From NCBI GenBank assembly GCA_037783545.1, contig JBBELK010000388.1, forward strand, positions 186,001 to 250,000: a stretch of 64,000 nt of DNA, given 5' to 3'. The notes below the pieces were generated by a model. That model ran no database searches. It was given only the letters and a program-made list of their open reading frames with translations, and was not told the origin of the DNA. Shown one piece after another: positions 4,902 to 35,610 of this stretch. The number at the start of each line of letters is the position of its first letter. The stretch's first letter is position 1. The DNA is from Henricia sp. BOLD:AAB3569 (taxonomy: Eukaryota > Echinodermata > Asteroidea > Spinulosida > Echinasteridae). The translations under genes were made by a program, and so were the position numbers.

Positions 4902-5339
4902 TCTGTATCGCACAGATTTATAATACGCATACTGGCCATATAAATCACAGTCATCAAGTTCGATTAGCCTTTTGCGCGTTTCACATAAATAGCATCTAAC
5001 GTACGGAATCTCTTTATTTCACCTGTACCCAATAGATGACCATACTAGATATTTGTTGCTATGTAATGGGTGCACGTGACCGGTGTGAAGTACAGAATAC
5101 ATACCATGTTCACTGTACGACAGAATGGCATAAAATAACCAGACTGTTGGTTGCTATAGGCAGTGGCCTGCACCGTGTAGCAACATAGTATGCAAACTTT
5201 CTGAACGGCACACTGAAAGTGAAGAATTCGGAGTGCCAGCCATAGTGCAACGGTTACTCGCAAAAGGCTAATTACAGTGTAGGTTCTGCCGTGAACCTAC
5301 TGGATTAACTTTGGATCATGATATACACAAAATTTACCA

Positions 5340-5345
5340 AATAAA
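5340..5345 (+). promoter_or_regulatory. AATAAA poly(A) signal candidate for copy A
   Basis: First clear AATAAA after the copy A stop codon, giving a 3' UTR of about 440 nt (4902-5345). In copy B the matching spot lies 15 kb away, beyond the tandem insertion, and reads AAAGAAAA, so copy B has lost this signal. Confidence 0.4.
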
Positions 5346-6486
5346 ACAATTTCAACTGCAAAGCATAACAAGCAAACGAAATGTTAAAAACAAAAAAAAC
5401 CTAAACATTAAATGCTGCAAATCAAATATGGTGAATATTTCACCATACTGCATTCGTGCAGTTGTAAATATGTAAATATATGTTGTGTTTGAAAAAAATA
5501 TATATATATATAAAAAGAAAAAAATATGTATAAAATATAAAAAGGGGAAATTTACTATACTGGCTATGGTCAAATTAAAGAGACTAGAACAAAATTATCA
5601 ACACTCAATGTAAGTTTCCAAAACAAAACAAAATTAAAGCAAATATTTACACCGACTGGAGAGTTTGTGCTATACAGAAAGAATATCTTGTACTTCCAGA
5701 TTACTTTCAGGTGATTTTAAGCTTCCTGACGAAGTAGAGAAAATACTAATTATTTTCCAGGGACATTTCTCAAATTTCTCAGTGCACACTAGCAAATATC
5801 ATTGTACATTACACTAACTGTTGTACAATTCGGGTGATCAAAGTCTGCTTAAAGAAAGAAAACTTTGTAAATTCACAAGATGTTTAACAATGTTTTTAAA
5901 AATGTGTTGATACTAGAATAATCATGGAAAATGAAAGAATATCATCCTTTATTCATTTAATAAAATATTTGCATCAACGGTGTTTATCGATCATGAAACT
6001 CCTAAAATGAAATTTGTAACTTTCAGCAAACAAGTATATCTGAATTCTGTAAAAATCTGTAAAAAGCCAGTTTTATAGTTTAATAGAAAGCGAAGAAATG
6101 TATTTTGAATTATGTACAGAATTACACACTGGAATGATTCATTCAGAACACAAACTCATTGCTTATAACGCAATTATCTCATTTTTAATAGTTCTTGTTC
6201 ATATTTTTTGGTATCAATGTATCGGTATATGGTACAACATCATGGTGATTAATTACAATTCTGCGATGAGGGGGGAGAAAATCTGGTGTGTTGAACTATT
6301 TTATTATGTGTGCTTGCCTTCAAATAATGTGGATTGGAAAGCTGGAGAACAAAAGACAAGGTGAAAGTATTTGTGAGTTCGTACAAAGCAAGATAGTTCT
6401 AAGGGGGGAAAAGACATTTCTAAGTAAGAGGAAAAACAGACTGCAAACATTTTTTTGACAGGGTCACACTAGTCTACCACAACTAA

Positions 6487-6674: not shown

Positions 6675-7564
6675 TAAACGAGAGTCACCTGGACTGAACT
6701 GTCACGAGAAAATCCCACGCCATTATGGTTTCATCATTTTCCACCACCATATTTGCGAAATAAAAGTGCGACATTGCGAATTATTTGCAAAGATATTTGC
6801 GATTTGCGATGTCCCTTGTATGTATACGCCACGATATTATACTAAACAATATTTTGCTCGCTTCATTGGAAAATAATATCTTAATCAGAAAACTGTGGTG
6901 TGGCGCGTTTGAGATGCGTTCCTGGGGCCCGCCCGGCACGGCTTGTGAATTCGTAATCCATGATCCAAGATGGGAAAAGGAACAACCGCATAACTAATGT
7001 TGATAAACTGTCCTGTTTCAGCCACATAATCAGAAAACCTGAGAAATCCGTGCATGGTAAAAAAAAAAGAAGAAGAAGGGGTCTGCAGACAGTTGACAAT
7101 TTCTCTTAGCTCACAAAGGTACCATTTTACCATTGCTATATCAACATTTTTAGTCACATAGGTTGTTCTTGTAAATTCGTGAACTAAAGTTTTGGTTAAA
7201 GTTACATTGTCCGTACGTGGTTCTCAGCAAATTCGATTTGTTTTTTCTCAGAACGAATTTTTAAAGCATTTACTTTACTTTGACAAAATAAAAACATCAT
7301 ATTTTGTATTTTAGACATCACCAAGTCTGTGAAAAACGCCGTTTTTTGTACGGCCGTTTTTGCGGCTTTGCTTTTAATTGCCGTGAGTTGAATAATTGCG
7401 GACCGACAATAATTCGAAATACAAGTATTGACAGTAATTGTTTGATAACTAAACGTTGGTCGATTTTTGTCCGTTGATGTCTCATTTGAATTAAGGTGAA
7501 TAACTTGTATGTTTCTAGAAAAGTATCACCTTTCGACGTGCAACACTCAAATCACGCGGACATA

Positions 7565-7765
7565 TCATCTTTAACTGCAAAACAATGTTAGGGCTTTAAA
7601 ACATAGCATTTTCTCTTGAAAAAGTACCATATTTTTTACACGGGAAAAACCATGTGGTGTTTTGTAATCGCATTTCCATCAACACATTTAGTCGGGTTTT
7701 TCTTGTCAAATTGCGAAGTACCCGATAAATGTTTGGGTAACTGCAAATGATGTATTGGGCCTGGG
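7565..7765 (-). repeat. Dispersed repeat (CAATACATCATTTGCAG family), inverted
   Basis: In reverse complement it matches 31538-31660: CCCAATACATCATTTGCAGT, then GTTGAT..CAATGG-like sequence and CACCACATG..GTGTAAAA. Spacer B carries the orthologue at 34578-34765. No coding capacity. Confidence 0.5.
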
Positions 7766-8559
7766 GATTTAAAATTTGGATGTTTAGGGGTGCAGCCAAG
7801 TAAAAATAGGCAGAGATCTGTGCGCCGAGCTCATGAATATTTTGTATGCCCTCAAACTTTTCTTTATTAGGGAGAGTTGCGAGCTGAACGAGTGTGGTCT
7901 TGTGTAAAATATGACTATCGTCGCTATGTGGGGTATTTTTTCTTCCAACTATAAACATTTTAGACACTGTAGCTCCTATAAGTGGCCCTAATTTGCCCAG
8001 TAGCGTATGTGCCTTTGTTCCAAAATGGGTGCTGGTCTAGTTAGCAAGTTTCACTGTTGCAGGGGTAGTTTTGTTTCAAGTGGACATTAGGGAATAAAAG
8101 TGACGGATTACCCCCATAATATTGAACAGAATTGAAAAGATGAGACTTCAGTGAGTATTCCGGTTGTTATCCTGAGAAGCTGAGAGAGTTGTGAGTATTT
8201 TTAAATGATTTTTGAAAATTGGGCATTTAGCATTGGTAAATTCACTGTAAAATACCGCGTGCTTGAACGAATTTGCGGCCCAAAGGGATTTTGAGAAACG
8301 GCGCAAACCTCCTCGAAAAAAGGCGTTATTTGGGCCCAGTTTATTTATTTATTTATTTATTTCTGTGGCAGAGGTTTCATCTTTGTCCATTTTGATTTCT
8401 ACAACAATAAATGTTTTGTTTTGTTGCTGCACGACGCGTGGGTTCAGGCGATGGCGTCACAAAAAGTACTCGGACGAATCCAATATTTTGTTTTTGGGGG
8501 AATGGGCCCCTCGCTCGATGTACGTTAATCAGCATTCTCATTTCCCTACAGTGCTACCG

Positions 8560-9642
8560 CTGATAATTTGACAGCATTTGTTTTCACACAAATGATGATT
8601 GATCACTTCACTTCTACAGCGTTTAAAGTAGGCCAACTCCTCTTTTTCAGTTCTTTTTTGTTGTTCTTGTGCGGCCGGAGATGCACTCCTTCTACAAAAT
8701 TCATGCAACGCGCGGACAACTAGTCACGCGCCCTCTGTTTAAATATATCCCATAGTTCCTTGCGAAAAGTTAACTAGCGAAATTTCGGCCCTTTTCCGTC
8801 TTCAAGCTCCAGGCTCCGGCTTCATGCGGCTCCGGCTCAATACGCCTCCGGCTTCACTTTAGCGAAGCCAAACTAAAAACCGTTTGGAACACTAGTCGGG
8901 CCTAGTAGGCCTACCACTCTTTTTCACCGGCTTTTTAAAAGAACTAGCAGACGAGTTTTGTCGGCGGCAAAGTTTAGCAAACCAGCAAAAGTTCACAAAG
9001 TTTTTGTTGCTGTCACGTGATTTTCCAGTTCATGACGTCACGAAGCCGGCCGAAGTCACCTATTTAGTTGACTTCGTTTTGGAGCCTCATTTGGGCCAAA
9101 ACGAAGCCTCGAAATAAAGCCTGAAGCCGAGCCGAAGTTTGGTATGCGGTTTCAAGATGGCGGAATGGAGACGGGACCGGAGACGGAGACGAAGCCGAGA
9201 GTTGGAAAAAGGCCCACAAGATGGCGGAATGGAGACGGGACCGGAGACGGAGACGAAGCCGAGAGTTGGAAAAAGGCCCAGGTTTTTGTCATCTTGCATG
9301 TGCATGCTCTTGTCAAAAATGGGAAAAGAAGTGCCTGCGAACAAGTAAATTCGGCCTAGGTGGGTCATATTTACTATTTGTTAATATAACCTCCAGAAAG
9401 AAAGGGTAAATTTTCAGAAATAAACTTCGTCGTCGCTGGTTTTTGGTTGGATATTTCATTCAATAAAGTGATTGTCACGTCACAGTTGTTAACTCGAACT
9501 CGCGCCGCGCACCGCGCGCTCGCGCTACGCCCAGGCAGCCAGGGTAAACAAAACCCAGTGTTGTCTTTGGAAACGGCACATTGCGTGTATGCTGTGTAAA
9601 CAGTGTGGACGCCTTTTTTCATAAGAATTTTTATCGATTCGA
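8560..9642 (+). promoter_or_regulatory. Candidate upstream regulatory region of copy B
   Basis: CpG-richer stretch ending at the copy B ATG. It holds an E-box CACGTG (9014-9019), a full CRE/ATF palindrome TGACGTCA (9033-9040) and AAGATGGCGGA (YY1-like) at about 9158. The CRE and E-box are conserved upstream of copy C (TGACGTCA at 40721). No transcription start was determined, and part of the region is an inverted-repeat element (8787-9279), so some motifs may belong to a transposon. Confidence 0.35.
8787..9279. repeat. Inverted-repeat element upstream of copy B, with a 66-bp internal tandem duplication
   Basis: Ends GGCCCTTTTCC / GGAAAAAGGCCC, with CTCCGGCTTC-rich arms facing GAAGCCGAG-rich arms. 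The segment AAGATGGCGGAATGG to AAAAAGGCCCA is present twice in tandem (about 9157-9222 and 9223-9284) in unit A but once in unit B (40534-40903). Confidence 0.5.
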
Positions 9643-13600: not shown

Positions 13601-16600
13601 AACGTGACAATCAACCCTACTAATGACAATGCCAACAATTCCAAGAATGACATCAAGCTTGCTGTTAGTTCCAACTGCATCGCAGCTAGCCCCGGGAACA
13701 GATCTCAGACAATCGACGTAACCTGGAATCCTTGCTCGTCTACATCAATTGACTTCAAAACCAGTTCCTTCGTAATTGACGCGGTGACATCTTATCAACC
13801 AAGGTCTACATCAAGTGCTTCTGCTGCCAGGAGCAGTTCATCACTCTTTTCCAACGAGTCAATTGAGAAAGCAAGACCCGATGACAACCATGATGGCAAG
13901 ACCATTCCGGCAATTGAGGACCGTTCAACCCAAACTGATACCATGAAGCAGACTTCTCTAATCAAGACAATTCTCCATGAGCCATTACAGAGCCGACCTG
14001 AATCCATCTCTTGCACTGCGCCTGCAACCGTTCAGCCCTAGTGTGATCAGTACAAGTTCCAAGACCCTGACCCTTCAGAAGAATTCGTATCCTACTTGGA
14101 TGTTCTTACAGAGGAGAATATCAAGACAGCTACAATTAAACGCACCAAGAATTACATCAACAGGTTTACCGACATGGGAAAGGCTAACATTGTCATCTTG
14201 CCTTACGATGATTCCGAAGCAGCCCAGGACGTGTCCGACATCGACGAGATGAATGTAATCTCAGTTCTCGATGATATTCCACCAGTTAAGACAAATCCCG
14301 ATGATGAAAAGACCCCAGCTGCAGTGACAACTTGTTCCGACTACATCCTCAATATTCCCATGGATTTTGAGCTGCCAAGCGTGACCATACAGACAAGCAC
14401 TAGCATCCGGTCGGTCTTCTTCGGGATTAGAAAATGGTTTTCGGGATTGCTGTCTAAACCCAGACTTGATATTGGCGATGACTACAAGTTGGAAGTGACT
14501 AAAAATGATTCTTCCATGAAAACCCCAGCCAAAACCAAGCACACCGCCTCAAGCTGGCTTCCTATTAGTGGAAATAACAACTGCGATACTGAAGAAAAGG
14601 CGATCAATATCCTAGGCTCTGTCTTCCAAAGATCGAGCGACAGGTTCGAGTACAATTCCGTCTCTTCATCCACCAGTTGGAGCAGCATCCAGTCAGTTCA
14701 GATTGCCTTGAAGAAACAACTCACTCCAGTCGCAAAGTTCATTATTGTATTCTGCCACGTCCTTCTGATTGCGTCCTGCGTGCTTGCGGTGTGGTGGTCC
14801 ATATACTCCCTCCATGGCTTCTGTCGGAGCGCCTTCTGGGAGTGGGCTGCCACTGCTGTCACTGCTGTTCTCATCCAGTCTATCATTTGTGATACCATCA
14901 AGGGTGCCATCATAACGTTTCTCAAGCGGTTGTCCTCCAAGGAAGAGACAAAACCAAAGCCCTACTCCATCATTCTCTAATCTGTATCGCACAGATTTCT
15001 AATACGCATACTGGCCATATAAATCACAGTCATCAAGTTCAATTAGCCTTTTGCGTGTTACACATAAATAGCATCTAACGTACGGAGTCTCTTCATTTCA
15101 CCTGTACCCAATAGATGACCATACTAGATATGTGTTGCTATGTAATGGGTGCACGTGACCGGTGTGAAGTACATAATAAATACCATGTTCACTGTACGAC
15201 AGAATGGCATAAAACAACCAGACTGTCGGTTGCCATAGGCAGTGGCGTGCACCGTGTAGCAACATAGTATGCAAACTTTCTATACGGCACACTGAAAGTG
15301 AAGAATTCGGAGTGCCAGCCATAGTGCAACGGTTACTCGCAAAAGGCTAATTACATGTAGGTTCTGCCGTGAATCTACTGGATTAACTTTGGATCATGAT
15401 ATTGCATTTTACCGCATAAACGATAAAATAATTTATGCTGAGCGAACGCGGTCTTGTTGATAGGAGATTCGGCGCGGTTTTGTTCCCCTTCGAAGCCTTT
15501 TTGCACACGAGTTTCTGCACGGTTTGCCAGCCGGAGTTTGCGGACGCAAGCGAAGTCTTCTGTGGGCCACCCTACTGAATATGTAGTGGCATTGGGCGAA
15601 GGATTCTGGGCAGCCAATCACTGCAGGCCTTTCAGCCCGCACCGCCAAACCTTCGCGCGCGTAAACATCACAAAGTCGCGTACTTGGATGAGTTAACATG
15701 CTTAATTTGTTAACGAAATTAATACGAGCCTTTTGGCTCTGTTTGTGACAATTGTTTCACAATGCTTATATGATTGGCCGGAATGGGGAACGTCGTTTTC
15801 ATAAAGACAAGTTGAGGGTTCTTTTACGGATTTCTCGTTGCTAAAATCGTGAAGAAACCATGGGTATTTTAATCGAGAAAATTTTGCTGTGTGTGTGTGT
15901 AGGTGTACCTGCATGTACATGTATTGACTGTCGTTTGAACCCGTCTGGCAGACCGGAACTTCCCGGAACCTAATCTAATCACGAGTTCTTGGAGGCACGT
16001 GTATTGCACTGCGAAAGTAATAAATGACAGATTTGAGGAAGTTATACCTGCTGAGTATCTACCTGCTGAACGTTAATACGAGATTTGGGTCTATAAATGC
16101 CGAGACTGTCGCCCATTTCAGCATTCTTCCAACGGGTGAATCCCGGAGTGTTCGCTGACCGGAACGGACGGAAGCGACCGGACGGCGCTGAAGGGAAATT
16201 GCAGGATTCACGCGGATGATTCACGATGTCCAGAGCTGAACTTGCGTCGGAATCCTAGTCATGAATGAGCTAACAACCGTCAGAACACATGGATATCTGC
16301 TTGGACACTGTCGACCTGATGAGTAATACCGAGATTCGAGGAACTGTATTGGCTATAGGTTGGAAATGTAATTTCTGTGACGTTAACCCTCATTCCGATC
16401 AAATCTCATGTTGTTTTATCAAACAAGTACTGAGTAAGGCTTAGTACTGAGCATGCTGAGTGAGTATTTCTCATTTTAAATTTAGTACAGCGGCACACAA
16501 GTATTTATTTGAAGCACTTTTGCAATACATGTAATTTAGTCAAAAAGGGATTGTTGTCCTTGGCGACGGGCGGGCCTGGAGAAGTTGCTTGGTTGCCAGA

Positions 16601-16899
16601 AAGCATTGCTTAGGAGAAAGCATTGCCTAGGAGCCGGAAGGGAATTTCCTCTATTTTCCCTAAAAGGGTTTTTGAGAGGTTTTCGCCCTTCCCTGCGCTC
16701 CGCCCATTTGCCTGACGAGCTCCCAGTTGACTCGGCCACGTGTTGCTAATTTGATACAGTGTTTACATTTGAACAATGTTTTTTGCTTAGTCGCTATTTG
16801 TCCCCTTTTTGCACATTCTATGTACATGTTGGTGTGTTAAGGGCAAACTTCATGCTCACGCTGTCTTTGAAGTTGCACCCGCTTCCGCAGATTTTTACT

Positions 16900-17865
16900 G
16901 AACATGTACATTTTGATCTTGAGGTCAATCTTGAGGTCAATGGTTATGGGTATTGATTAGCCTACCCTAGGGAGTATTGACCGGTCTATCCGATATTCGG
17001 TTTTCTTCATTTGTATTTAACCGTTAATTTGTGTCAACATATCAGGGGTGAGATTTTTCCGGATTTTTACCAATTTGTTTGGTTTGTTTTTCCCCCTTTT
17101 TGCACACCATTTTAACGAGCGCCCTCAATTGATTCGTAATTTTGCGAAGAAAACGCGAGGAAAACAAACAGCCAAGGAATTGGTTACTCTCCACTTTTGC
17201 TTCACCGTCTTCAACGGTAGATGTTGCCTGGATCCTTTTTTATTTTTCCACATTTGTTGGCCTATAAACAAGGTAAATTTTTCAAACGAAACTGGTTCTC
17301 GTGATGCCTAATTAAAATGTTTTTTTACTTGCAATGTGCACGATGCCGATTGTACGGTGGTGTTTCAAACAATCCTTTGAGAAGCTGAAGTTGCGCGCGT
17401 GATCCCCCAAGAAAGCCACGCCCCTTCCGGAATTCCCTCCAATCTCACCTCTGATATTTGCGCACGCCAATTACCTCCCTCCCTAGCGTGCGCTCACGTG
17501 ACACTTAATAGTTTGACCATCTATGAACATGCATGTATGTGCACTAGATGAGATATGCAGTTGCAGTTGGCTACATGTATGAGAATTGAAGCCACGCGTC
17601 TCTAGAACATGTACATTTTGCACTTGCGGTCAAACTGATGGTTATGCCTATATGGGTATTGATTTGCCTACCCCAGGTATTATATTTCGGTCTAGCCGAT
17701 CTTCGGTTTTCCAACTTATGTTATTTAACGGTTAATTAGTGTCAAAATATGCACACGCCAATTAAAACGTGTATGGGCATGCGCTCACGTGACAACTTAA
17801 TGGTTTGACCATCGATGTGCATGTATATGCACTGGATGGGTTATGCAGTAGCAGTTGGCTATACT
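16900..17865. repeat. Internal direct repeats of the long element
   Basis: 16900-17046 and 17606-17758 are diverged copies (GAACATGTACATTTTG, TATTGATTWGCCTACCC, TTCGGTTTTC, TTAACSGTTAATTWGTGTCAA). 17459-17572 and 17751-17865 are a second pair (GCGCTCACGTGAC, GTTTGACCATC, GCAGTTGGCTA). Confidence 0.6.
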
Positions 17866-18435
17866 TTGTCGGTTGCCTAGGCAATTGGCTCCAGACTAAA
17901 GGTCACTGACCCGTGTCCCTGTGCTTTGCGGTGGTGCTTTATCCGACAGCCATGACAGTTTGGATCCAATTGTCATGGGAACCACGTCACACTCTGGCTG
18001 TCTATTGAAGCCGCGCGCCGGCCGCCTTCGTGCCCCGCGGGCAGTGGCCCGGACTGCTCCCCGTCCATGCGGTCGCATGCATGCCACTCAACACATGTAG
18101 CCCACGACGTTGACTGGTGAGGACAGTGTGACCAGTCTAGGCAATGCATTGGTTGGGTGGTGTGCAGTTGCGGATGGTTGTTTCATTTTTGACGTCGTTA
18201 CTTTCACGGGACATTGGACGGAAAGTACGGTAGCTGTTCTTTACCGCAATCTGTGATTTCTTACAGGTTTGCATCCTATTCATTTCGGAGACCTCCAACG
18301 GGGGAAGTTGAGAGGATGTGGCGGATTTATTTCGCTTAATTTTATGCATTTATATTCTATGCATTATTCTGTGTTTTTCTATGTATTCTGGTTTATGCTC
18401 CAGTAGGTTTTTATAAAGCTTGCTTTCTTTAACAG

Positions 18436-18791
18436 CGTGTGTTAAAGAAGATGTGCCATCGTATTCAAGCATTCTCCGCAGGTTTGTATACCACGTACAT
18501 GTACATCAATTTGCTTTATAATGCTAACGCACACTGTTCTTTTCCAGGACAAGGCAGGGTGCTTAGTTATGTAAAGTTTAATAGGCTATAGCAAATGTTC
18601 TGTAGCTGTAGTCGGCTGGTATTTTTATTCGTGCATGTTCTGTCTGTAATTGTCTGTACGTGTGTCATCCGTTTCAAGTTCGTGCTCCCATTTTTGAGGT
18701 GCTGGTTTGTGCTTTCAGTAAATTATTTTTGCTTGCTTTAATTTGCAGCGTAGAATGAAGAAGATGTGCACTCTTCAAGCGTTACCCACAG
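18436..18791 (+). other. Pair of exon-like 46/43-nt segments with splice-site contexts
   Basis: 18436-18481 is preceded by TTTCTTTAACAG and followed by GTTTGTAT; 18749-18791 is preceded by TTTAATTTGCAG and followed by GTTTGTAT. Both contain AAGAAGATGTGC and TTCAAGC, differ by 3 nt in length and share an open frame (KKMC core). They may be a duplicated mini-exon or just a repeat with chance splice motifs. Confidence 0.25.
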
Positions 18792-19061
18792 GTTTGTATA
18801 TGTATACCACGTACGTGTAATTTTGCCTTCATAATGCTAGCATTCCTGTTCTTTACCATGGCAAGGCTTGGCGTATGCAAACGAATTTATTTCAATTGCA
18901 TTAATATTTATGTACATGTGCATTCATAACTTTGTACATAGGCGATAGCAAAATTTTTGTTTTCTTTGTTGTATCATGTATAGTGGACTTACTAGGATTC
19001 TCCGGTTATGCACGAACTTTCAAATGTGGCTGCCATTTACTGCGCGGTTTCGTTGTTAAAC

Positions 19062-19084
19062 AAATAATAATAATAATACAATTA

Positions 19085-19115
<31 letters not shown>

Positions 19116-19116
19116 C
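19062..19116. repeat. AT microsatellite
   Basis: Runs of ATA, A and a TA dinucleotide tract. Confidence 0.9.
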
Positions 19117-19358
19117 AACATGTATTAATAACAATGAATACCAAAGAGCTGTGGTCCATGTTGTAGGTTTATTGCAGTAATGTCTGTTTGCAGTGGTTAA
19201 TTGCTGCATCGCGTTTTAAAATGGCAATCTCGTGTTGCTAAATTCATCTCTAATTGCCATCCTACCATTTACCCCATTTTCTTAATAATGACCTCTTTCG
19301 TGCATTGTTGGGAAAGGAGTGGCACGCACGAGATTGCTGTGATGCATGCTCCGACGGG

Positions 19359-19433
19359 ATGCCCTGTTAACTAAGTTGGTAGAACAGTTGGCATGTATGC
19401 CAAGGATCTGGGCTCGAATCCAAGTCGTGGCAT
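19359..19433 (+). other. Degenerate tRNA-like sequence
   Basis: A-box-like TAACTAAGTTGG, B-box GGCTCGAATCC, D-stem TGTT/AACA, anticodon stem TTGGC/GCCAA, T-arm with one mismatch and a partly paired acceptor (ATGCC/GGCAT). The anticodon loop is one base short. Followed by an A-rich tract (19468 on), as in a tRNA-derived SINE. A 24-bp near-repeat (CTCGTG..CTAAATTCATC) lies on both sides (about 19230 and 19443). Confidence 0.4.
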
Positions 19434-20939
19434 TGCAATTTTCTCGTGTTTCTAAATTCATCTTTAGAAAAAAAAAAATTTATTATAATAATAATTGCAA
19501 TTTTTGACAACTGTACAGCCTACTTCGGGAATTTTTTTTGTGGCTTCGTGAAACAAAGTTGACATGCTTTGTCCACACAAATTTGATTTCCAATTTTACA
19601 GCCACACATTGTTTTGATTCGTGTTGGCGTAACTGGGCCTTTGATCCAGGTGTTAATCGCCTTACGGATGGCAGACAGAACTACAATGTATCTGCGATTG
19701 TGGTAGCAGCTGCGCTGCTTACATGTCATTTTTTTTGGAGCTTAACCATGAAACTCAGTCATGCTTTGTTGACGGGTTTCACTTCGCACGCGATGAACCT
19801 AACGTTGCTTTCTCTCAGAATGCGTCTCGGTTTGACCTAAATTAAAAAGTTTAAATAAATTTAAAAAAATAAAAATATAAAATACGAACGGGTCAATCAC
19901 TTGATTTTTTAGATTGCTGTGCTGTGGTTCCCCTTTCTTTGCGTGCTTAGCGTTCGGGCTGGTTTGTCCTGGTTGTGCGTCTTGAGCTGTCGTTTCCTTT
20001 GGGCGCGCGCAGCGCGTGTGGCAGTTTTGGCAGGAAACCAACAGCAACCTTGCACAACTTGTGAATTGTTGTTCTTCTTGCAATAATGTTAACAAATTAC
20101 ACATTTAAGGCTCAATCTGCAGTGCATATGCGTACAGTATGACTGCTTACTAAATAAATGTAATCAAAAGTAATCGAGTAAACTAGACTTTACAAAGCAC
20201 ATCCACTTCCGCTGAGTGTACCGCTGCGGAATATGGATGTGCCTTGGACGTAATTGTGCAGGGTACATGTATTGATAAGCCTACCCAATATCATCAATTG
20301 TAGTAAACTAGACTAAATGTAATCAAAAGTTATCGAGTAAACTAGACTTAACAGAGCACATTCACTTCCGCTGAGGTACCGCTGCGGAACATGGATGCGC
20401 CTTAAACGTAATTGCGCTGGGATAAGGTGAAAACGTCACCCTTTGTGTGTTGGCAACTGACGTCACACTTTTGTAGTCTGTTGTAGTAAACTAGACTGAA
20501 TGTAATTAAAAGTAATCGAGTAAACTAGGGTATTGTGCAGCGTATTGATATGCCTACCCTGAGGTACATGTACCTACCTGAGGTACATGTGCCTTAAACG
20601 TAATTGTCCAGGGTATTGATATGCCTACCCGTGGGTATTGATAAGCCTACCCAATCTCATCAATTGTAGTAAACTAGACTAAATGTAATTAAAAGTAATC
20701 GAGTAAACTAGGGTATTGATATGCCTACCCTGGGGGTATTGATAAGCCTACCCCATCTTCGGTATTCTATAAACAGTTATTTGGCACAGTGTATTCTTTA
20801 AAACCTTTTTGGTAAATCGCTGTGCATTCATCTAAATTTGGAACCTTTGGTCACATGTCATGTTTTAACGAAGACTCAATAAATCCTTGTACGACGACAG
20901 AGAACAAAAACCATTTGGCGTTTCGTCTCGTTCGTTTGT

Positions 20940-20989
20940 CTCAGCATAATGCATTTTACCGCATAAACGATAAAATAATTTATGCTGAG
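20940..20989. repeat. End-junction palindrome of the tandem element (one of eight)
   Basis: Left arm CTCAGCATAA..ATTTTA and right arm TAAAAT..TTATGCTGAG pair over 19 positions with three mismatches around a 12-nt loop. The monomer boundary, which is also the insertion boundary, falls right after the first CTCAGCATAA. Repeats at each monomer junction. Confidence 0.8.
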
Positions 20990-23900
20990 CGAACGCGGTC
21001 TTGTTGATAGGAGATTCGGCGCGGTTTTGTTCCCCTTCGAAGCCTTTTTGCACACGAGTTTCTGCACGGTTTGCCAGCCGGAGTTTGCGGACGCAAGCGA
21101 AGTCTTCTGTGGGCCACCCTACTGAATATGCAGTGGCATTGGGCGAAGGATTCTGGGCAGCCAATCACTGCAGGCCCTTCAGCCCGCACCGCCAAACCTT
21201 CGCGCGCGTAAACATCACAAAGTCGCGTACTTGGATGAGTTAACATGCTTAATTTGTTAACGACCCACCTCCACCCCGAGCGACCACCTCTTCGGTTTAA
21301 GTGTCGTTCTTCAAGGGCACAGTTTTGGCAGGAAACCAACAGCAACCTTGCACAACTTGTGAATTGTTGTTCTTCTTGCAATAATGTTAACAAATTACAC
21401 ATTTAAGGCTCAATCTGCAGTGCATATGCGTACAGTATGACTGCTTACTAAATAAATGTAATCAAAAGTAATCGAGTAAACTAGACTTTACAAAGCACAT
21501 CCACTTCCGCTGAGTGTACCGCTGCGGAATATGGATGTGCCTTGGACGTAATTGTGCAGGGTACATGTATTGATAAGCCTACCCAATATCATCAATTGTA
21601 GTAAACTAGACTAAATGTAATCAAAAGTTATCGAGTAAACTAGACTTAACAGAGCACATTCACTTCCGCTGAGGTACCGCTGCGGAACATGGATGCGCCT
21701 TAAACGTAATTGCGCTGGGATAAGGTGAAAACGTCACCCTTTGTGTGTTGGCAACTGACGTCACACTTTTGTAGTCTGTTGTAGTAAACTAGACTGAATG
21801 TAATTAAAAGTAATCGAGTAAACTAGGGTATTGTGCAGCGTATTGATATGCCTACCCTGAGGTACATGTACCTACCTGAGGTACATGTGCCTTAAACGTA
21901 ATTGTCCAGGGTATTGATATGCCTACCCGTGGGTATTGATAAGCCTACCCAATCTCATCAATTGTAGTAAACTAGACTAAATGTAATTAAAAGTAATCGA
22001 GTAAACTAGGGTATTGATATGCCTACCCTGGGGGTATTGATAAGCCTACCCCATCTTCGGTATTCTATAAACAGTTATTTGGCACAGTGTATTCTTTAAA
22101 ACCTTTTTGGTAAATCGCTGTGCATTCATCTAAATTTGGAACCTTTGGTCACATGTCATGTTTTAACGAAGACTCAATAAATCCTTGTACGACGACAGAG
22201 AACAAAAACCATTTGGCGTTTCGTCTCGTTCGTTTGTCTCAGCATAATGCATTTTACCGCATAAACGATAAAATAATTTATGCTGAGCGAACGCGGTCTT
22301 GTTGATAGGAGATTCGGCGCGGTTTTGTTCCCCTTCGAAGCCTTTTTGCACACGAGTTTCTGCACGGTTTGCCAGCCGGAGTTTGCGGACGCAAGCGAAG
22401 TCTTCTGTGGGCCACCCTACTGAATATGCAGTGGCATTGGGCGAAGGATTCTGGGCAGCCAATCACTGCAGGCCCTTCAGCCCGCACCGCCAAACCTTCG
22501 CGCGCGTAAACATCACAAAGTCGCGTACTTGGATGAGTTAACATGCTTAATTTGTTAACGACCCACCTCCACCCCGAGCGACCACCTCTTCGGTTTAAGT
22601 GTCGTTCTTCAAGGGCACAGTTTTGGCAGGAAACCAACAGCAACCTTGCACAACTTGTGAATTGTTGTTCTTCTTGCAATAATGTTAACAAATTACACAT
22701 TTAAGGCTCAATCTGCAGTGCATATGCGTACAGTATGACTGCTTACTAAATAAATGTAATCAAAAGTAATCGAGTAAACTAGACTTTACAAAGCACATCC
22801 ACTTCCGCTGAGTGTACCGCTGCGGAATATGGATGTGCCTTGGACGTAATTGTGCAGGGTACATGTATTGATAAGCCTACCCAATATCATCAATTGTAGT
22901 AAACTAGACTAAATGTAATCAAAAGTTATCGAGTAAACTAGACTTAACAGAGCACATTCACTTCCGCTGAGGTACCGCTGCGGAACATGGATGCGCCTTA
23001 AACGTAATTGCGCAGGGATAAGGTGAAAACGTCACCCTTTGTGTGTTGGCAACTGACGTCACACTTTTGTAGTCTGTTGTAGTAAACTAGACTGAATGTA
23101 ATTAAAAGTAATCGAGTAAACTAGGGTATTGTGCAGCGTATTGATATGCCTACCCTGAGGTACATGTACCTACCTGAGGTACATGTGCCTTAAACGTAAT
23201 TGTCCAGGGTATTGATATGCCTACCCGTGGGTATTGATAAGCCTACCCAATCTCATCAATTGTAGTAAACTAGACTAAATGTAATTAAAAGTAATCGAGT
23301 AAACTAGGGTATTGATATGCCTACCCTGGGGGTATTGATAAGCCTACCCCATCTTCGGTATTCTATAAACAGTTATTTGGCACAGTGTATTCTTTAAAAC
23401 CTTTTTGGTAAATCGCTGTGCATTCATCTAAATTTGGAACCTTTGGTCACATGTCATGTTTTAACGAAGACTCAATAAATCCTTGTACGACGACAGAGAA
23501 CAAAAACCATTTGGCGTTTCGTCTCGTTCGTTTGTCTCAGCATAATGCATTTTACCGCATAAACGATAAAATAATTTATGCTGAGCGAACGCGGTCTTGT
23601 TGATAGGAGATTCGGCGCGGTTATGTTCCCCTTCGAAGCCTTTTTGCACACGAGTTTCTGCACGGTTTGCCAGCCGGAGTTTGCGGACGCAAGCGAAGTC
23701 TTCTGTGGGCCACCCTACTGAATATGCAGTGGCATTGAACGAAGGATTCTGGGCAGCCAATCACTGCAGGCCCTTCAGCCCGCACCGCCAAACCTTCGCG
23801 CGCGTAAACATCACAAAGTCGCGTACTTGGATGAGTTAACATGCTTAATTTGTTAACGACCCACCTCCACCCCGAGCGACCACCTCTTCGGTTTAAGTGT

Positions 23901-26900
23901 TGTTCTTCAAGGGCACAGTTTTGGCAGGAAACCAACAGCAACCTTGCACAACTTGTGAATTGTTGTTCTTCTTGCAATAATGTTAACAAATTACACATTT
24001 AAGGCTCAATCTGCAGTGCATATGCGTACAGTATGACTGCTTACTAAATAAATGTAATCAAAAGTAATCGAGTAAACTAGACTTTACAAAGCACATCCAC
24101 TTCCGCTGAGTGTACCGCTGCAGAATATGGATGTGCCTTGGACGTAATTGTGCAGGGTACATGTATTGATAAGCCTACCCAATATCATCAATTGTAGTAA
24201 ACTAGACTAAATGTAATCAAAAGTTATCGAGTAAACTAGACTTAACAGAGCACATTCACTTCCGCTGAGGTACCGCTGCGGAACATGGATGCGCCTTAAA
24301 CGTAATTGCGCAGAGATAAGGTGAAAACGTCACCCTTTGTGTGTTGGCAACTGACGTCACACTTTTGTAGTCTGTTGTAGTAAACTAGACTGAATGTAAT
24401 TAAAAGTAATCGAGTAAACTAGGGTATTGTGCAGCGCATTGATATGCCTACCCTGAGGTACATGTACCTACCTGAGGTACATGTGCCTTAAACGTAATTG
24501 TCCAGGGTATTGATATGCCTACCCGTGGGTATTGATAAGCCTACCCAATCTCATCAATTGTAGTAAACTAGACTAAATGTAATCGAGTAAACTAGGGTAT
24601 TGATATGCCTACCCTGGGGGTATTGATAAGCCTACCCCATCTTCGGTATTCTATAAACAGTTATTTGGCACAGTGTATTCTTTAAAACCTTTTTGGTAAA
24701 TCGCTGTGCATTCATCTAAATTTGGAACCTTTGGTCACATGTCATGTTTTAACGAAGACTCAATAAATCCTTGTACGACGACAGAGAACAAAAACCATTT
24801 GGCGTTTCGTCTCGTTCGTTTGTCTCAGCATAATGCATTTTACCGCATAAACGATAAAATAATTTATGCTGAGCGAACGCGGTCTTGTTGATAGGAGATT
24901 CGGCGCGGTTATGTTCCCCTTCGAAGCCTTTTTGCACACGAGTTTCTGCACGGTTTGCCAGCCGGAGTTTGCGGACGCAAGCGAAGTCTTCTGTGGGCCA
25001 CCCTACTGAATATGCAGTGGCATTGAACGAAGGATTCTGGGCAGCCAATCACTGCAGGCCCTTCAGCCCGCACCGCCAAACCTTCGCGCGCGTAAACATC
25101 ACAAAGTCGCGTACTTGGATGAGTTAACATGCTTAATTTGTTAACGACCCACCTCCACCCCGAGCGACCACCTCTTCGGTTTAAGTGTTGTTCTTCAAGG
25201 GCACAGTTTTGGCAGGAAACCAACAGCAACCTTGCACAACTTGTGAATTGTTGTTCTTCTTGCAATAATGTTAACAAATTACACATTTAAGGCTCAATCT
25301 GCAGTGCATATGCGTACAGTATGACTGCTTACTAAATAAATGTAATCAAAAGTAATCGAGTAAACTAGACTTTACAAAGCACATCCACTTCCGCTGAGTG
25401 TACCGCTGCGGAATATGGATGTGCCTTGGACGTAATTGTGCAGGGTACATGTATTGATAAGCCTACCCAATATCATCAATTGTAGTAAACTAGACTAAAT
25501 GTAATCAAAAGTTATCGAGTAAACTAGACTTAACAGAGCACATTCACTTCCGCTGAGGTACCGCTGCGGAACATGGATGCGCCTTAAACGTAATTGCGCT
25601 GGGATAAGGTGAAAACGTCACCCTTTGTGTGTTGGCAACTGACGTCACACTTTTGTAGTCTGTTGTAGTAAACTAGACTGAATGTAATTAAAAGTAATCG
25701 AGTAAACTAGGGTATTGTGCAGCGTATTGATATGCCTACCCTGAGGTACATGTACCTACCTGAGGTACATGTGCCTTAAACGTAATTGTCCAGGGTATTG
25801 ATATGCCTACCCGTGGGTATTGATAAGCCTACCCAATCTCATCAATTGTAGTAAACTAGACTAAATGTAATTAAAAGTAATCGAGTAAACTAGGGTATTG
25901 ATATGCCTACCCTGGGGGTATTGATAAGCCTACCCCATCTTCGGTATTCTATAAACAGTTATTTGGCACAGTGTATTCTTTAAAACCTTTTTGGTAAATC
26001 GCTGTGCATTCATCTAAATTTGGAACCTTTGGTCACATGTCATGTTTTAACGAAGACTCAATAAATCCTTGTACGACGACAGAGAACAAAAACCATTTGG
26101 CGTTTCGTCTCGTTCGTTTGTCTCAGCATAATGCATTTTACCGCATAAACGATAAAATAATTTATGCTGAGCGAACGCGGTCTTGTTGATAGGAGATTCG
26201 GCGCGGTTATGTTCCCCTTCGAAGCCTTTTTGCACACGAGTTTCTGCACGGTTTGCCAGCCGGAGTTTGCGGACGCAAGCGAAGTCTTCTGTGGGCCACC
26301 CTACTGAATATGCAGTGGCATTGAACGAAGGATTCTGGGCAGCCAATCACTGCAGGCCCTTCAGCCCGCACCGCCAAACCTTCGCGCGCGTAAACATCAC
26401 AAAGTCGCGTACTTGGATGAGTTAACATGCTTAATTTGTTAACGACCCACCTCCACCCCGAGCGACCACCTCTTCGGTTTAAGTGTTGTTCTTCAAGGGC
26501 ACAGTTTTGGCAGGAAACCAACAGCAACCTTGCACAACTTGTGAATTGTTGTTCTTCTTGCAATAATGTTAACAAATTACACATTTAAGGCTCAATCTGC
26601 AGTGCATATGCGTACAGTATGACTGCTTACTAAATAAATGTAATCAAAAGTAATCGAGTAAACTAGACTTTACAAAGCACATCCACTTCCGCTGAGTGTA
26701 CCGCTGCGGAATATGGATGTGCCTTGGACGTAATTGTGCAGGGTACATGTATTGATAAGCCTACCCAATATCATCAATTGTAGTAAACTAGACTAAATGT
26801 AATCAAAAGTTATCGAGTAAACTAGACTTAACAGAGCACATTCACTTCCGCTGAGGTACCGCTGCGGAACATGGATGCGCCTTAAACGTAATTGCGCTGG

Positions 26901-29900
26901 GATAAGGTGAAAACGTCACCCTTTGTGTGTTGGCAACTGACGTCACACTTTTGTAGTCTGTTGTAGTAAACTAGACTGAATGTAATTAAAAGTAATCGAG
27001 TAAACTAGGGTATTGTGCAGCGTATTGATATGCCTACCCTGAGGTACATGTACCTACCTGAGGTACATGTGCCTTAAACGTAATTGTCCAGGGTATTGAT
27101 ATGCCTACCCGTGGGTATTGATAAGCCTACCCAATCTCATCAATTGTAGTAAACTAGACTAAATGTAATTAAAAGTAATCGAGTAAACTAGGGTATTGAT
27201 ATGCCTACCCTGGGGGTATTGATAAGCCTACCCCATCTTCGGTATTCTATAAACAGTTATTTGGCACAGTGTATTCTTTAAAACCTTTTTGGTAAATCGC
27301 TGTGCATTCATCTAAATTTGGAACCTTTGGTCACATGTCATGTTTTAACGAAGACTCAATAAATCCTTGTACGACGACAGAGAACAAAAACCATTTGGCG
27401 TTTCGTCTCGTTCGTTTGTCTCAGCATAATGCATTTTACCGCATAAACGATAAAATAATTTATGCTGAGCGAACGCGGTCTTGTTGATAGGAGATTCGGC
27501 GCGGTTTTGTTCCCCTTCGAAGCCTTTTTGCACACGAGTTTCTGCACGGTTTGCCAGCCGGAGTTTGCGGACGCAAGCGAAGTCTTCTGTGGGCCACCCT
27601 ACTGAATATGCAGTGGCATTGGGCGAAGGATTCTGGGCAGCCAATCACTGCAGGCCCTTCAGCCCGCACCGCCAAACCTTCGCGCGCGTAAACATCACAA
27701 AGTCGCGTACTTGGATGAGTTAACATGCTTAATTTGTTAACGACCCACCTCCACCCCGAGCGACCACCTCTTCGGTTTAAGTGTCGTTCTTCAAGGGCAC
27801 AGTTTTGGCAGGAAACCAACAGCAACCTTGCACAACTTGTGAATTGTTGTTCTTCTTGCAATAATGTTAACAAATTACACATTTAAGGCTCAATCTGCAG
27901 TGCATATGCGTACAGTATGACTGCTTACTAAATAAATGTAATCAAAAGTAATCGAGTAAACTAGACTTTACAAAGCACATCCACTTCCGCTGAGTGTACC
28001 GCTGCGGAATATGGATGTGCCTTGGACGTAATTGTGCAGGGTACATGTATTGATAAGCCTACCCAATATCATCAATTGTAGTAAACTAGACTAAATGTAA
28101 TCAAAAGTTATCGAGTAAACTAGACTTAACAGAGCACATTCACTTCCGCTGAGGTACCGCTGCGGAACATGGATGCGCCTTAAACGTAATTGCGCAGGGA
28201 TAAGGTGAAAACGTCACCCTTTGTGTGTTGGCAACTGACGTCACACTTTTGTAGTCTGTTGTAGTAAACTAGACTGAATGTAATTAAAAGTAATCGAGTA
28301 AACTAGGGTATTGTGCAGCGTATTGATATGCCTACCCTGAGGTACATGTACCTACCTGAGGTACATGTGCCTTAAACGTAATTGTCCAGGGTATTGATAT
28401 GCCTACCCGTGGGTATTGATAAGCCTACCCAATCTCATCAATTGTAGTAAACTAGACTAAATGTAATTAAAAGTAATCGAGTAAACTAGGGTATTGATAT
28501 GCCTACCCTGGGGGTATTGATAAGCCTACCCCATCTTCGGTATTCTATAAACAGTTATTTGGCACAGTGTATTCTTTAAAACCTTTTTGGTAAATCGCTG
28601 TGCATTCATCTAAATTTGGAACCTTTGGTCACATGTCATGTTTTAACGAAGACTCAATAAATCCTTGTACGACGACAGAGAACAAAAACCATTTGGCGTT
28701 TCGTCTCGTTCGTTTGTCTCAGCATAATGCATTTTACCGCATAAACGATAAAATAATTTATGCTGAGCGAACGCGGTCTTGTTGATAGGAGATTCGGCGC
28801 GGTTATGTTCCCCTTCGAAGCCTTTTTGCACACGAGTTTCTGCACGGTTTGCCAGCCGGAGTTTGCGGACGCAAGCGAAGTCTTCTGTGGGCCACCCTAC
28901 TGAATATGCAGTGGCATTGAACGAAGGATTCTGGGCAGCCAATCACTGCAGGCCCTTCAGCCCGCACCGCCAAACCTTCGCGCGCGTAAACATCACAAAG
29001 TCGCGTACTTGGATGAGTTAACATGCTTAATTTGTTAACGACCCACCTCCACCCCGAGCGACCACCTCTTCGGTTTAAGTGTTGTTCTTCAAGGGCACAG
29101 TTTTGGCAGGAAACCAACAGCAACCTTGCACAACTTGTGAATTGTTGTTCTTCTTGCAATAATGTTAACAAATTACACATTTAAGGCTCAATCTGCAGTG
29201 CATATGCGTACAGTATGACTGCTTACTAAATAAATGTAATCAAAAGTAATCGAGTAAACTAGACTTTACAAAGCACATCCACTTCCGCTGAGTGTACCGC
29301 TGCAGAATATGGATGTGCCTTGGACGTAATTGTGCAGGGTACATGTATTGATAAGCCTACCCAATATCATCAATTGTAGTAAACTAGACTAAATGTAATC
29401 AAAAGTTATCGAGTAAACTAGACTTAACAGAGCACATTCACTTCCGCTGAGGTACCGCTGCGGAACATGGATGCGCCTTAAACGTAATTGCGCAGAGATA
29501 AGGTGAAAACGTCACCCTTTGTGTGTTGGCAACTGACGTCACACTTTTGTAGTCTGTTGTAGTAAACTAGACTGAATGTAATTAAAAGTAATCGAGTAAA
29601 CTAGGGTATTGTGCAGCGCATTGATATGCCTACCCTGAGGTACATGTACCTACCTGAGGTACATGTGCCTTAAACGTAATTGTCCAGGGTATTGATATGC
29701 CTACCCGTGGGTATTGATAAGCCTACCCAATCTCATCAATTGTAGTAAACTAGACTAAATGTAATCGAGTAAACTAGGGTATTGATATGCCTACCCTGGG
29801 GGTATTGATAAGCCTACCCCATCTTCGGTATTCTATAAACAGTTATTTGGCACAGTGTATTCTTTAAAACCTTTTTGGTAAATCGCTGTGCATTCATCTA

Positions 29901-30015
29901 AATTTGGAACCTTTGGTCACATGTCATGTTTTAACGAAGACTCAATAAATCCTTGTACGACGACAGAGAACAAAAACCATTTGGCGTTTCGTCTCGTTCG
30001 TTTGTCTCAGCATAA
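20950..30015. repeat. Seven tandem 1.3-kb monomers
   Basis: Monomer starts (TGCATTTTACC): 20950, 22248, 23546, 24834, 26132, 27430, 28728. Five are 1,298 bp and two (23546 and 28728) are 1,288 bp with the same 10-bp loss. Each contains four variants of AGTAATCGAGTAAACTAG, paired GGGTATTGATATGCCTACCC motifs, a GC-rich part with an AGCCAATCAC CCAAT-box-like motif, and the end hairpin. Variant order shows a higher-order period of four monomers (5,182 bp). The 61-140 aa open frames in the monomers overlap on both strands and are not taken as genes. Confidence 0.95.
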
Positions 30016-30722
30016 TGCATTTTACCGCATAAACGATAAAATAATTTATGCTGAGCGAACGCGGTCTTGTTGATAGGAGATTCGGCGCGGTTATGTTCCC
30101 CTTCGAAGCCTTTTTGCACACGAGTTTCTGCACGGTTTGCCAGCCGGAGTTTGCGGACGCAAGCGAAGTCTTCTGTGGGCCACCCTACTGAATATGCAGT
30201 GGCATTGAACGAAGGATTCTGGGCAGCCAATCACTGCAGGCCCTTCAGCCCGCACCGCCAAACCTTCGCGCGCGTAAACATCACAAAGTCGCGTACTTGG
30301 ATGAGTTAACATGCTTAATTTGTTAACGACCCACCTCCACCCCGAGCGACCACCTCTTCGGTTTAAGTGTTGTTCTTCAAGGGCACAGTTTTGGCAGGAA
30401 ACCAACAGCAACCTTGCACAACTTGTGAATTGTTGTTCTTCTTGCAATAATGTTAACAAATTACACATTTAAGGCTCAATCTGCAGTGCATATGCGTACA
30501 GTATGACTGCTTACTAAATAAATGTAATCAAAAGTAATCGAGTAAACTAGACTTTACAAAGCACATCCACTTCCGCTGAGTGTACCGCTGCAGAATATGG
30601 ATGTGCCTTGGACGTAATTGTGCAGGGTACATGTATTGATAAGCCTACCCAATAAATCCTTGTACGACGACAGAGAACAAAAACCATTTGGCGTTTCGTC
30701 TCGTTCGTTTGTCTCAGCATAA
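30016..30722. mobile_element. Last monomer, internally deleted (707 bp)
   Basis: A monomer lacking 591 bp relative to 20290-20880. The junction CCCAATAAATCC near 30650 has a CAAT microhomology shared by both deletion edges. It still ends at CTCAGCATAA, the exact insertion boundary. Confidence 0.85.
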
Positions 30723-33371: not shown

Positions 33372-33680
33372 TTCCGCGCACACTGTGACGAAAAGGCGAA
33401 AAGCACCCTAACATGTAGCTGTGATATTTTTTTCTCAGACCAAATGGCTCCATCCTATAGACAAGACAGTATAGCACACTGCTTTCTTTTCCCCTAAAAT
33501 GAGCCTGTAGGCCTACTTAATTTTTTTTATTATAAAAAGCGATTAGTTACAGTACAAGAGTGGTCCCCATGGCCAGGAATTTGCGTTTTAAACTTTGCAG
33601 GATTTTCCCAGGAGATTTTCAAAAACGGAAAAAAATATATCCCGGCTTTGAAAAAAGGGTTAAAGACAGATAACATGATT
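33372..33680. other. Spacer segment kept in unit B, absent from unit A
   Basis: About 310 bp between two GAT trinucleotides, collapsed to one GAT in unit A (near 6970). This looks like a microhomology deletion in A. No coding signal. Confidence 0.5.
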
Positions 33681-33803: not shown

Positions 33804-34096
33804 TAATAACAGTAATTAGATTTGTATAGCGCACATATCCACCCTGCAGGGTGCTCAAGGCGCTGTTACCATTATTACCGCTGCCATCAGGAAATCACCA
33901 GAACCATTTCGCTTCAACTAGGTGGCTGCTGGTCAGGCGCGCAATTCCCCTTGGCATTCCCCTTAACAGCTTCCCATATATCGCTTTGGTTGACGAGGCA
34001 ACTGGGATTAAGTGCCTTGCCCAGGGACACAGACACGTTGGTCGAAGTGGGGCTCGAACCCCCACCCTCTGATTGGGAGTCCCAATCGCGCTCCCA
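33804..34096 (-). mobile_element. tRNA-derived SINE in spacer B
   Basis: Unit A has the empty site (near 7097). In reverse complement it carries a B-box-like GGGTTCGAGCC in a tRNA-like arm, the central motif CCCTGGGCAAGGCACTTAA, and a 3' part ending GCGCCTTGAGCACC..TGTGCGCTATACAAAT before an ATTATTATT-like tail. The A-box half looks truncated. It inserted after the A/B duplication. Confidence 0.7.
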
Positions 34097-35610
34097 ATTT
34101 AATTCTCTTAGCTCACAAAGGTACCATTTTACCATTGCTATATCAACATCTTTAGTCACATAGGTTTTCCTTGTAAATTCGTTAACTAAAATTTTGGTTA
34201 AAGTTACATTGTCTGTACGTGGTTCTCAGCAAATTCGATTTGTTTTTTCTCAGAACGAATTTTTCAAGCATTTACTTTACTTTTACAAAATAAAAACATC
34301 ATATTTTGTATTTTAGACATCACCAAGTCTGTGAAAAACGCCGTTTTTTGTACGGCTGTTTTTGCGGCTTTGCTTTTAATTGCCGTGAGTTGAATAATTG
34401 CGGACCGACAATAATTCGAAATACAAGTATTGACAGTAATTGTTTGATAACTAAACGTTGGTCGATTTTTGTCGGTTGATGTCTCATTTGAATTAAGGTG
34501 AATAACTTGTATGTTTCTAGAAAAGTATCATCTTTCGACGTGCAACACTCAAATCACGCGGACATATCATCTTTAACTGCAAAACAATGTTAGGGCTTTA
34601 AAACATGGCATTTTCTCCTCAAAAAGTACCATATTTTTTACACGGGAAAAACCATGTGGTGTTTTGTTAGCATTTCCATCAACACATTTAGTCGGGTTTT
34701 TCTTGTCAAATTGCGAAGTACCCGATAAATGTTTGGGTAACTGCAAATGATGTATTGGGCCTGGGGATTTAAAATTTGGATGTTAAATAGGCAGAGATCT
34801 GTGCGCCGAGCTCATGAATATTTTGTATGCCCTCAAATTCTTCTTTATTAGGGAGAGTTGCGAGCTGAACGAGTGTGGTCTTGTGTAAAATATGACTATC
34901 GTCGCTATGTGGGGTATTTTTTCTTCCAACTATAAACATTTTAGACACTGTAGCTCCTATAAGTGGCCCTATTTTGCCCAGTAGCGTATGTGCCTTTGTT
35001 CCAAAATGGATGCTGATCTAGTTAGCAAGTTTCACTGTTGCAGGGGTAGTTTTGTTTCAAGTGGACATTAGGGAATAAAAGTGACGGATTACCCCCATAA
35101 AATTGAACAGAATTGAAAAGATGAGACTTCAGTGAGTATTCTGGTTGTTATCCCGAGAAGCTGAGAGAGTTGTGAGTATTTTTAAATGATTTTTGAAAAT
35201 TGGGCATTTAGCATTGGTTCCTATGGGAGCCCTATTTACTGGGGTGCACCCTTAGGATTAAATCTATATGCCTACTGTAAATTCACTGTAAAATACCGCG
35301 TGCTTGAACGAATTTGCGGCCCAAAGGGATTTTGAGAAACGGCGCAAACCTCCTCGAAAAAGGCGTTATTTCGGCCCAGTTTATTGATTGATTTATTTAT
35401 TTCTGTGGCAGAGGTTTCATCTTCGTCCATTTTGATTTCTACAACAATAAATGTTTTGTTTTGTTGCTGCACGACGCGTGGGTTCAGGAGATGGCGTCAC
35501 AAAAGTACTCGGACGAATCCAATATTTTGTTTTGGGGGAATGGGCCCCACGCTCGATGTACGTTGATCAGCATTCTCATTTCCCTACAGTGGTGCTACCG
35601 CTGATAATTT

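What the first reader, a model, noticed from the sequence alone, without database searches (positions are those of the whole stretch)
15403..30722. A tandem array inserted as one unit, bounded exactly by monomer ends
The empty site is in the same window (5324|5325), so both junctions can be read to the base. The insertion begins with the first base of a monomer and ends with the last base of a monomer. There is no target-site duplication. Ordinary satellite expansion or unequal exchange would not place array edges on monomer ends at a clean insertion site; integration of a head-to-tail multimer made by rolling-circle replication, or of a circle opened at a fixed point, would.
Basis: seen in the sequence. 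Interest (0 to 1): 0.88.

Follow-up and report, generated by a model that had tools for sequence, protein, structure and literature searches.

The report
End-to-end array of rolling-circle transposons
Nine copies of a non-coding, probably rolling-circle (Helitron-like) transposon sit nose to tail in an unidentified, probably eukaryotic genome, at a site that is still empty in a neighbouring duplicate: a cleanly readable case of a mobile element turning into a satellite-like array.

Summary
A 15,320-bp insertion (15403-30722) interrupts a duplicated locus whose other copy is empty at 5324|5325; there is no target-site duplication and the boundary cannot be shifted. All eight internal joints equal the joined outer ends. 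The array is less uniform than described: unit 1 is 5,547 bp, seven units are 1,288 or 1,298 bp, the last is 707 bp. The right end is a 10-bp inverted repeat whose partner lies 30 bp in from the left end; on the minus strand the joined ends fold into a two-stem hairpin (z -6.45) with the joint at the edge of its inner loop. This resembles the asymmetric terminal repeats of Helitron2 elements, but the 5' hairpin was not found, so it is not filed as a member. A five-unit ancestor plus two unequal exchanges reproduces all 15,320 bases. Tandem Helitron arrays and joined-end circles are already reported; distinctive here are both termini on all nine units, mixed unit types and an in-window empty site. 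No host genome was held, so other insertions could not be tabulated.

The parts
15403..30722 (-). whole insertion, 15,320 bp, nine head-to-tail units; element 5' end at 30722, 3' end at 15403 (orientation inferred by analogy with Helitron2)
15403..20949 (-). unit 1, 5547 bp: first 314 and last 928 bp shared with the short units, about 4.3 kb private middle, no relevant Pfam hit in the 11 of 43 ORFs scanned
20950..22247 (-). unit 2, 1298 bp, haplotype xT
22248..23545 (-). unit 3, 1298 bp, haplotype xA, identical to unit 7
23546..24833 (-). unit 4, 1288 bp, haplotype y-, identical to unit 8
24834..26131 (-). unit 5, 1298 bp, recombinant yT, identical to unit 6
26132..27429 (-). unit 6, 1298 bp, recombinant yT
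27430..28727 (-). unit 7, 1298 bp, haplotype xA
28728..30015 (-). unit 8, 1288 bp, haplotype y-
30016..30722 (-). unit 9, 707 bp, y- type with a 581-bp internal deletion flanked by a short direct repeat
30713..30722 (-). 5' terminal inverted repeat (0 bp from the 5' end)
15433..15442 (-). 3' copy of the inverted repeat, 30 bp in from the 3' end
15406..15429 (-). 3' terminal hairpin, 10-bp stem, 4-nt loop (weak when folded alone)
   Evidence: z -1.69, 16 of 200 shuffles as good
20940..20989 (-). joined-ends structure at an internal joint, one of eight identical: 10-bp stem plus inner hairpin
21453..22056 (.). diverged internal sub-repeats (spacing 159-183 bp among the longer families) in unit 2
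5225..5424 (.). paralogous empty site, junction 5324|5325

Best explanation
The insertion is a head-to-tail array of non-autonomous, rolling-circle (Helitron-like) transposons that work like Helitron2 elements. Each unit has a complete 5' end (TTATGCTGAG, minus strand) and a complete 3' end (inverted repeat, hairpin, ...TGCA). A transposase supplied from elsewhere in the genome joined one element's 3' end exactly to the next element's 5' end, as in the circle junctions such enzymes make, and placed the product between T and A without a target-site duplication. Shown: exact ends, exact joints, no duplication, terminal inverted repeat, mixed unit types, recombinant units. Inferred: the class of element, the trans-acting enzyme, and that a multimer (at least a dimer, possibly a 3-5 unit array read through from an older array) was inserted rather than single elements one after another; that last step alone I put at about 60:40. 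After the joints existed, unequal homologous exchange enlarged the array and made the four-unit periodicity; one unit lost an internal segment.
For: Empty site without duplication; 8 of 8 internal joints identical over 50 bp. The terminal repeat is 10 bp, 0 bp from one end and 30 bp from the other; published Helitron2 values are 8-15 bp, 0-2 bp and about 20-30 bp (PMC3627910 passages). An inverted repeat of 10 or more anchored at the edge is seen at 4 of 1298 unit phases (one is the real edge, one its mirror, two an unrelated hairpin) and at 95 of 48,440 points outside the array; 16 of 5000 random pairs of 60-base stretches share one as long. The joined ends fold at -12.9 kcal/mol, z -6.45, 0 of 200 shuffles as good; 20 of 4859 sampled 50-base windows outside the array reach that energy. 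T|A insertion is given in the text on Fusarium FoHeli1/2 (PMC5148889 passages; a figure legend there says TNAT and T). Internal sub-repeats resemble the central repeats of HINEs. A five-unit ancestor plus two unequal exchanges gives the observed 15,320 bases letter for letter for any crossover at unit positions 356-576.
Against: No RepHel gene was found: 11 of 43 unit-1-region ORFs and 1 short-unit ORF were scanned, with no relevant Pfam hit, and the longest stop-to-stop ORF listed in the array is 140 aa. The 3' hairpin alone is weak (z -1.69, 16 of 200 shuffles as good) and no 5' hairpin was found (z 0.51); 50 nt of the left end gave z 0.08. The joint is not the most stable place in the unit: of 260 sampled windows of unit 2 taken as a circle, the best folds at -15.2, at unit position 546. 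No second genomic copy could be examined. T|A is not the TT site reported for Helentrons/HINEs. Published plant arrays often have several 5' ends but one 3' end (review PMC12628747), unlike this one.
Confidence: 0.68

Rival explanations
1. Serial self-adjacent insertion: single elements of the same (Helitron-like) family inserted one after another exactly at the border of an element already there, because the border keeps a preferred target sequence. Unequal exchange then enlarged the cluster. This rival shares the element class with the best explanation; the two confidences overlap.
For: Units differ in length and haplotype. The host flank beside unit 1's 3' end resembles the element's 5' end, 10 of 15 bases, reached by 78 of 48,665 windows; of five flank/end comparisons made this is the only one that stands out. 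[quoted passage not shown]
Against: The flank resemblance was noticed after the fact, and the whole joint does not resemble the site: 741 of 13,898 sampled windows align as well as empty copy A, 8393 of 13,898 as well as B. U3-U4 and U7-U8 are identical over 2,586 bp in the same order, which serial insertion alone does not explain.
Confidence: 0.27
2. An extrachromosomal circle of an ordinary satellite was opened at an arbitrary point and joined into the locus by repair; the unit phase is defined only by that break.
For: Any opened circle gives edges in the same phase, and no target-site duplication is expected (reasoning). A stronger local fold than the joint exists elsewhere in the unit.
Against: The edge coincides with the end of a 10-bp inverted repeat and the boundary of a structured joint, and units of 5547, 1298 and 707 bp share exactly those ends.
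Confidence: 0.07
3. Assembly artefact: near-identical repeats collapsed or multiplied by the assembler.
For: 2,586 bp repeated without a difference and a longest exact run of 4,104 bp at offset 5182.
Against: Both edges are unique junctions to the locus, and units 1 and 9 differ from the rest. Copy number could still be wrong, the ends hardly.
Confidence: 0.06

Closest known systems
Helitron2 (Bao and Jurka 2013, PMC3627910; passages seen)
   Same: 10-bp asymmetric terminal inverted repeat at 0 and 30 bp from the ends, 5' T, a possible 3' hairpin next to the repeat
   Different: no 5' hairpin found, no RepHel seen, T|A insertion, tandem
Non-canonical Helitrons of Fusarium oxysporum, FoHeli1/2 (PMC5148889; passages seen)
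   Same: asymmetric terminal repeats, insertion between T and A according to the text, joined ends detected by PCR (FoHeli1)
   Different: elements of about 5-6 kb with other termini; the authors judged a tandem FoHeli1 insertion unlikely in the strain studied
HINE / Cg_HINE non-autonomous Helentrons of oyster (PMC7492417; passages seen)
   Same: non-coding, flanking modules around short tandem repeats of about 140-180 bp, no target-site duplication, empty sites found
   Different: TT insertion; here whole elements, not only central repeats, are tandem
Tandem Helitron arrays (bat, Drosophila, rice, maize and other plants; Xiong 2016 and Pritham and Feschotte 2007 not held, seen only as cited in PMC5148889, PMC5876387, PMC7492417 and PMC12628747)
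   Same: whole elements head to tail, attributed to rolling-circle replication
   Different: [quoted passage not shown] here 9 of 9 units keep both ends

Membership tests
Helitron2 | asymmetric terminal inverted repeats of 8-15 bp, 0-2 bp from the 5' end and about 20-30 bp from the 3' end | tested here: met
   10 bp, 0 bp and 30 bp; definition
Helitron2 | no target-site duplication in the usual case | tested here: met
Helitron2 | 3' hairpin next to the 3' repeat | tested here: inconclusive
   10-bp stem present, but z -1.69 alone; z -6.45 only with the ends joined
Helitron2 | 5' hairpin that uses the 5' repeat (one search says hairpins at both termini are seen in some Helitron2) | tested here: not met
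   first 60 nt: terminal repeat unpaired in the MFE structure, z 0.51; therefore not filed as a member
Helitron2 | RepHel transposase in the autonomous partner | not testable with these tools
   no host genome held; none seen in the units
Helentron / HINE | insertion within TT | tested here: not met
   minus strand ...TTTTGTGT|ATATC..., T|A, single site
Helentron / HINE | subterminal repeats of 12-15 bp, 2-4 nt from the 5' and 38-60 bp from the 3' end (values of mite HINEs) | tested here: not met
   10 bp, 0 and 30 bp
Helentron / HINE | central short tandem repeats between two modules (often present) | tested here: met
   diverged sub-repeats of 159-183 bp spacing
Canonical Helitron (Helitron1) | 5' TC, 3' CTRR, insertion between A and T | tested here: not met
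   ends TTATGC... and ...TGCA, site T|A
Retrozyme / hammerhead satellite | hammerhead ribozyme in the unit | tested here: not met
   no hammerhead hit up to E 5 in 15403-22247, where two other sub-threshold hits were listed; no Rfam family at gathering score in the window
Integrated CRESS-type ssDNA virus | Rep gene and NANTATTAC origin loop (motif recalled) | tested here: not met
   motif absent from U1 and U2 on both strands; no Rep-like Pfam hit in the ORFs scanned
Crypton | tyrosine recombinase and short terminal direct repeats | not tested
   considered from the passage only

The most novel reading that the evidence does not exclude
An array of different members of one Helitron2-like family, each keeping both termini, moved or was built as a single transposing unit: the transposase read through several internal 3' ends (or joined circles of different elements) and inserted the mixed multimer at one T|A site. 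That would make these elements able to spread satellite-like arrays ready made rather than seeding them for later expansion.
Probability: 0.25. Interest if true: 0.62.

Novelty: new variant of a known kind. Interest (0 to 1): 0.45.

Why it matters
How transposons become satellites has competing models: rolling-circle concatemers, site-preferring serial insertion, and unequal exchange. A locus with both edges, an empty paralogue, intact ends on every unit and readable recombinant units lets these steps be separated. The later growth by unequal exchange fits here to the base; the first joining step becomes a defined test on other genomic copies.

Tried and rejected
Satellite expansion alone was rejected because it does not create zero-gap joints that equal the insertion's own ends; it is kept as the later step.

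Rolling-circle copying of one monomer circle was rejected as a full account, because units of 5547, about 1298 and 707 bp and two diverged haplotypes are present. In-place divergence of the haplotypes is not excluded: x and y- differ at 8 of 1288 positions plus a 10-bp deletion, while the two host copies differ by 31 of 1109, 13 of 443 and 28 of 1177 near the insertion, though only by 19 of 3647 further left (gaps left out).

Hammerhead retrozymes and CRESS-type viruses: no supporting feature. Crypton was considered but not tested. No tRNA gene was found in the window (bacterial settings).

Searches for relatives: viral contigs with the 21-base joint, 0 matches, and with a 20-base terminus, 0 matches. 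Bacterial and archaeal genomes with that terminus gave 2 matches, both Clostridia MAGs, read as chance: of L001 I looked at 121 bases and saw no similarity beyond the motif; L002 was not read. Plasmids with unit 2: no match. The collections I searched hold prokaryotes, viruses and plasmids, so silence there says little about a eukaryotic host.

The first U1 alignment used a shortened U1 and gave inflated mismatch counts for U1 and U9; one search replaces it. The hairpin GCATAAA...TTTATGC that I first picked was dropped for the better-supported one; perfect hairpins of that size are common outside the array (2.5 counts per kb).

Full report
Observation. The window holds duplicated copies of one locus; copy A (1 to about 9567) and copy B (about 9567 to 41322) align, and part of a third copy follows from 41323 to 45969. 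In B, 15,320 bases (15403-30722) interrupt the alignment; A is continuous at 5324|5325. The flanks meet flush, nothing is duplicated, and the edge cannot be moved by a base. As an in-window contrast, a LINE inserted in B at about 35611-40326 has GCTGATAATT on both sides.

Anatomy. CTCAGCATAA|TGCATTTTACC marks 8 internal joints, and the outer ends are the two halves of that joint. This gives nine units: U1 5547 bp; U2, U3, U5, U6 and U7 1298 bp; U4 and U8 1288 bp; U9 707 bp. U1 shares 314 bp at its left end and 928 bp at its right end with the short type, with 2 differences from U2 on the left and none on the right; its middle of about 4.3 kb is replaced in the short units by about 56 bp. Of 43 stop-to-stop ORFs of at least 50 aa overlapping 15700-20100 I scanned 11 against Pfam: no relevant match, one sub-threshold 7TM_GPCR_Srt (E 0.0028) and one sub-threshold DUF1328 (E 0.018). 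One 140-aa ORF of the short unit, the longest listed in the array, had no match. The units look non-coding.

Termini. Read on the minus strand the unit begins TTATGCTGAG and ends with CTCAGCATAA followed by 30 bases. On the joined ends these two copies pair into a 10-bp stem around an inner hairpin; the joint lies at the edge of the inner loop, next to the 5' repeat. The 50-nt fold has z -6.45 with 0 of 200 shuffles as good, and 20 of 4859 sampled windows outside the array are as stable. Against this, another place inside the unit folds better (-15.2 kcal/mol at unit position 546, best of 260 windows), and the separate ends are much weaker: z -1.69 for the 3' end (40 nt), 0.08 for 50 nt of the same end, 0.51 for the 5' end. 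So the structure is significant as a joint and only suggestive as separate ends. Repeat length and spacing agree with the published description of Helitron2.

History of the array. There are eleven varying places (ten columns and one 10-bp deletion) apart from U9's large deletion; two changes are private to U1, the others define the x and y types. U3 and U4 equal U7 and U8 exactly (2,586 bp), U5 equals U6, and U5/U6 are y on the left and xT on the right. An ancestor U1-U2-U3-U4-U9, with one exchange between U9 and U2 and then one duplication of the resulting unit, reproduces the whole insertion to the base for any crossover at unit positions 356-576. This is one sufficient history, not the only one. 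U9's deletion is flanked by a short repeat (CAATA).

Mechanism. I commit to joining of element ends by a rolling-circle (HUH-type) transposase acting in trans, insertion at T|A without duplication, and later unequal exchange. Whether the first step was one multimer or several adjacent insertions stays open (about 60:40), and exact outer edges do not decide it. Precedents: Helraiser forms precise joined-end circles, and its authors cite head-to-tail Helitron arrays in plants and bats (PMC5876387 passages). FoHeli1 joined ends were amplified in Fusarium, and that paper cites tandem insertions in bat, Drosophila, rice and maize (PMC5148889 passages). A review describes plant arrays, many with several 5' ends but a single 3' end (PMC12628747 passages).

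Membership. It works like a Helitron2 element, but the 5' hairpin was tested and not found, the TT site and repeat distances of HINEs are not met, and the transposase partner could not be sought; I do not file it as a member of either family.

Novelty. Ten searches of open-licence PMC papers found tandem Helitrons and HINE-borne satellites; in the listings and the passages I opened I saw no description of an array with both termini intact in every unit and mixed unit lengths at a paralogous empty site. The two original array papers are not held, so this is a limited statement.

Limits. The host is unidentified; the LINE and the lack of a held genome suggest a eukaryote. One locus, one assembly. 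Statistics on termini were chosen after seeing the sequence.

Noticed in passing
window 52240-56373: Inverted repeat with 711-nt arms, 98% complementary, around 2.7 kb that holds 21-bp-period minisatellites (53407-55209); looks like a foldback-type element.
   Followed up: partly
window 35611-40326: LINE-type retrotransposon on the minus strand (endonuclease, reverse transcriptase and zf-RVT domains) inserted in copy B with a short target duplication; its reading frame is split over three ORFs.
   Followed up: partly
window 1-9567, 9567-41322, 41323-45969: Tandemly duplicated locus with a large ORF that looks like a multi-pass membrane protein (by eye; no Pfam or PDB match); of copies A and B only B carries the array. 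A/B divergence is uneven: 19 of 3647 on the far left, 2.4-2.9% near the insertion.
   Followed up: partly
window 62901-63961: About 2.2 copies of a 492-bp tandem repeat, 95% matches.
   Followed up: no
window 33373-33680 and 33808-34102: Two further short segments in copy B but not A, without clear target duplications.
   Followed up: no
window 15388-15402: The host flank next to unit 1 matches the element's 5' end at 10 of 15 bases (78 of 48,665 windows do as well); possible self-like target preference, noticed after the fact.
   Followed up: partly
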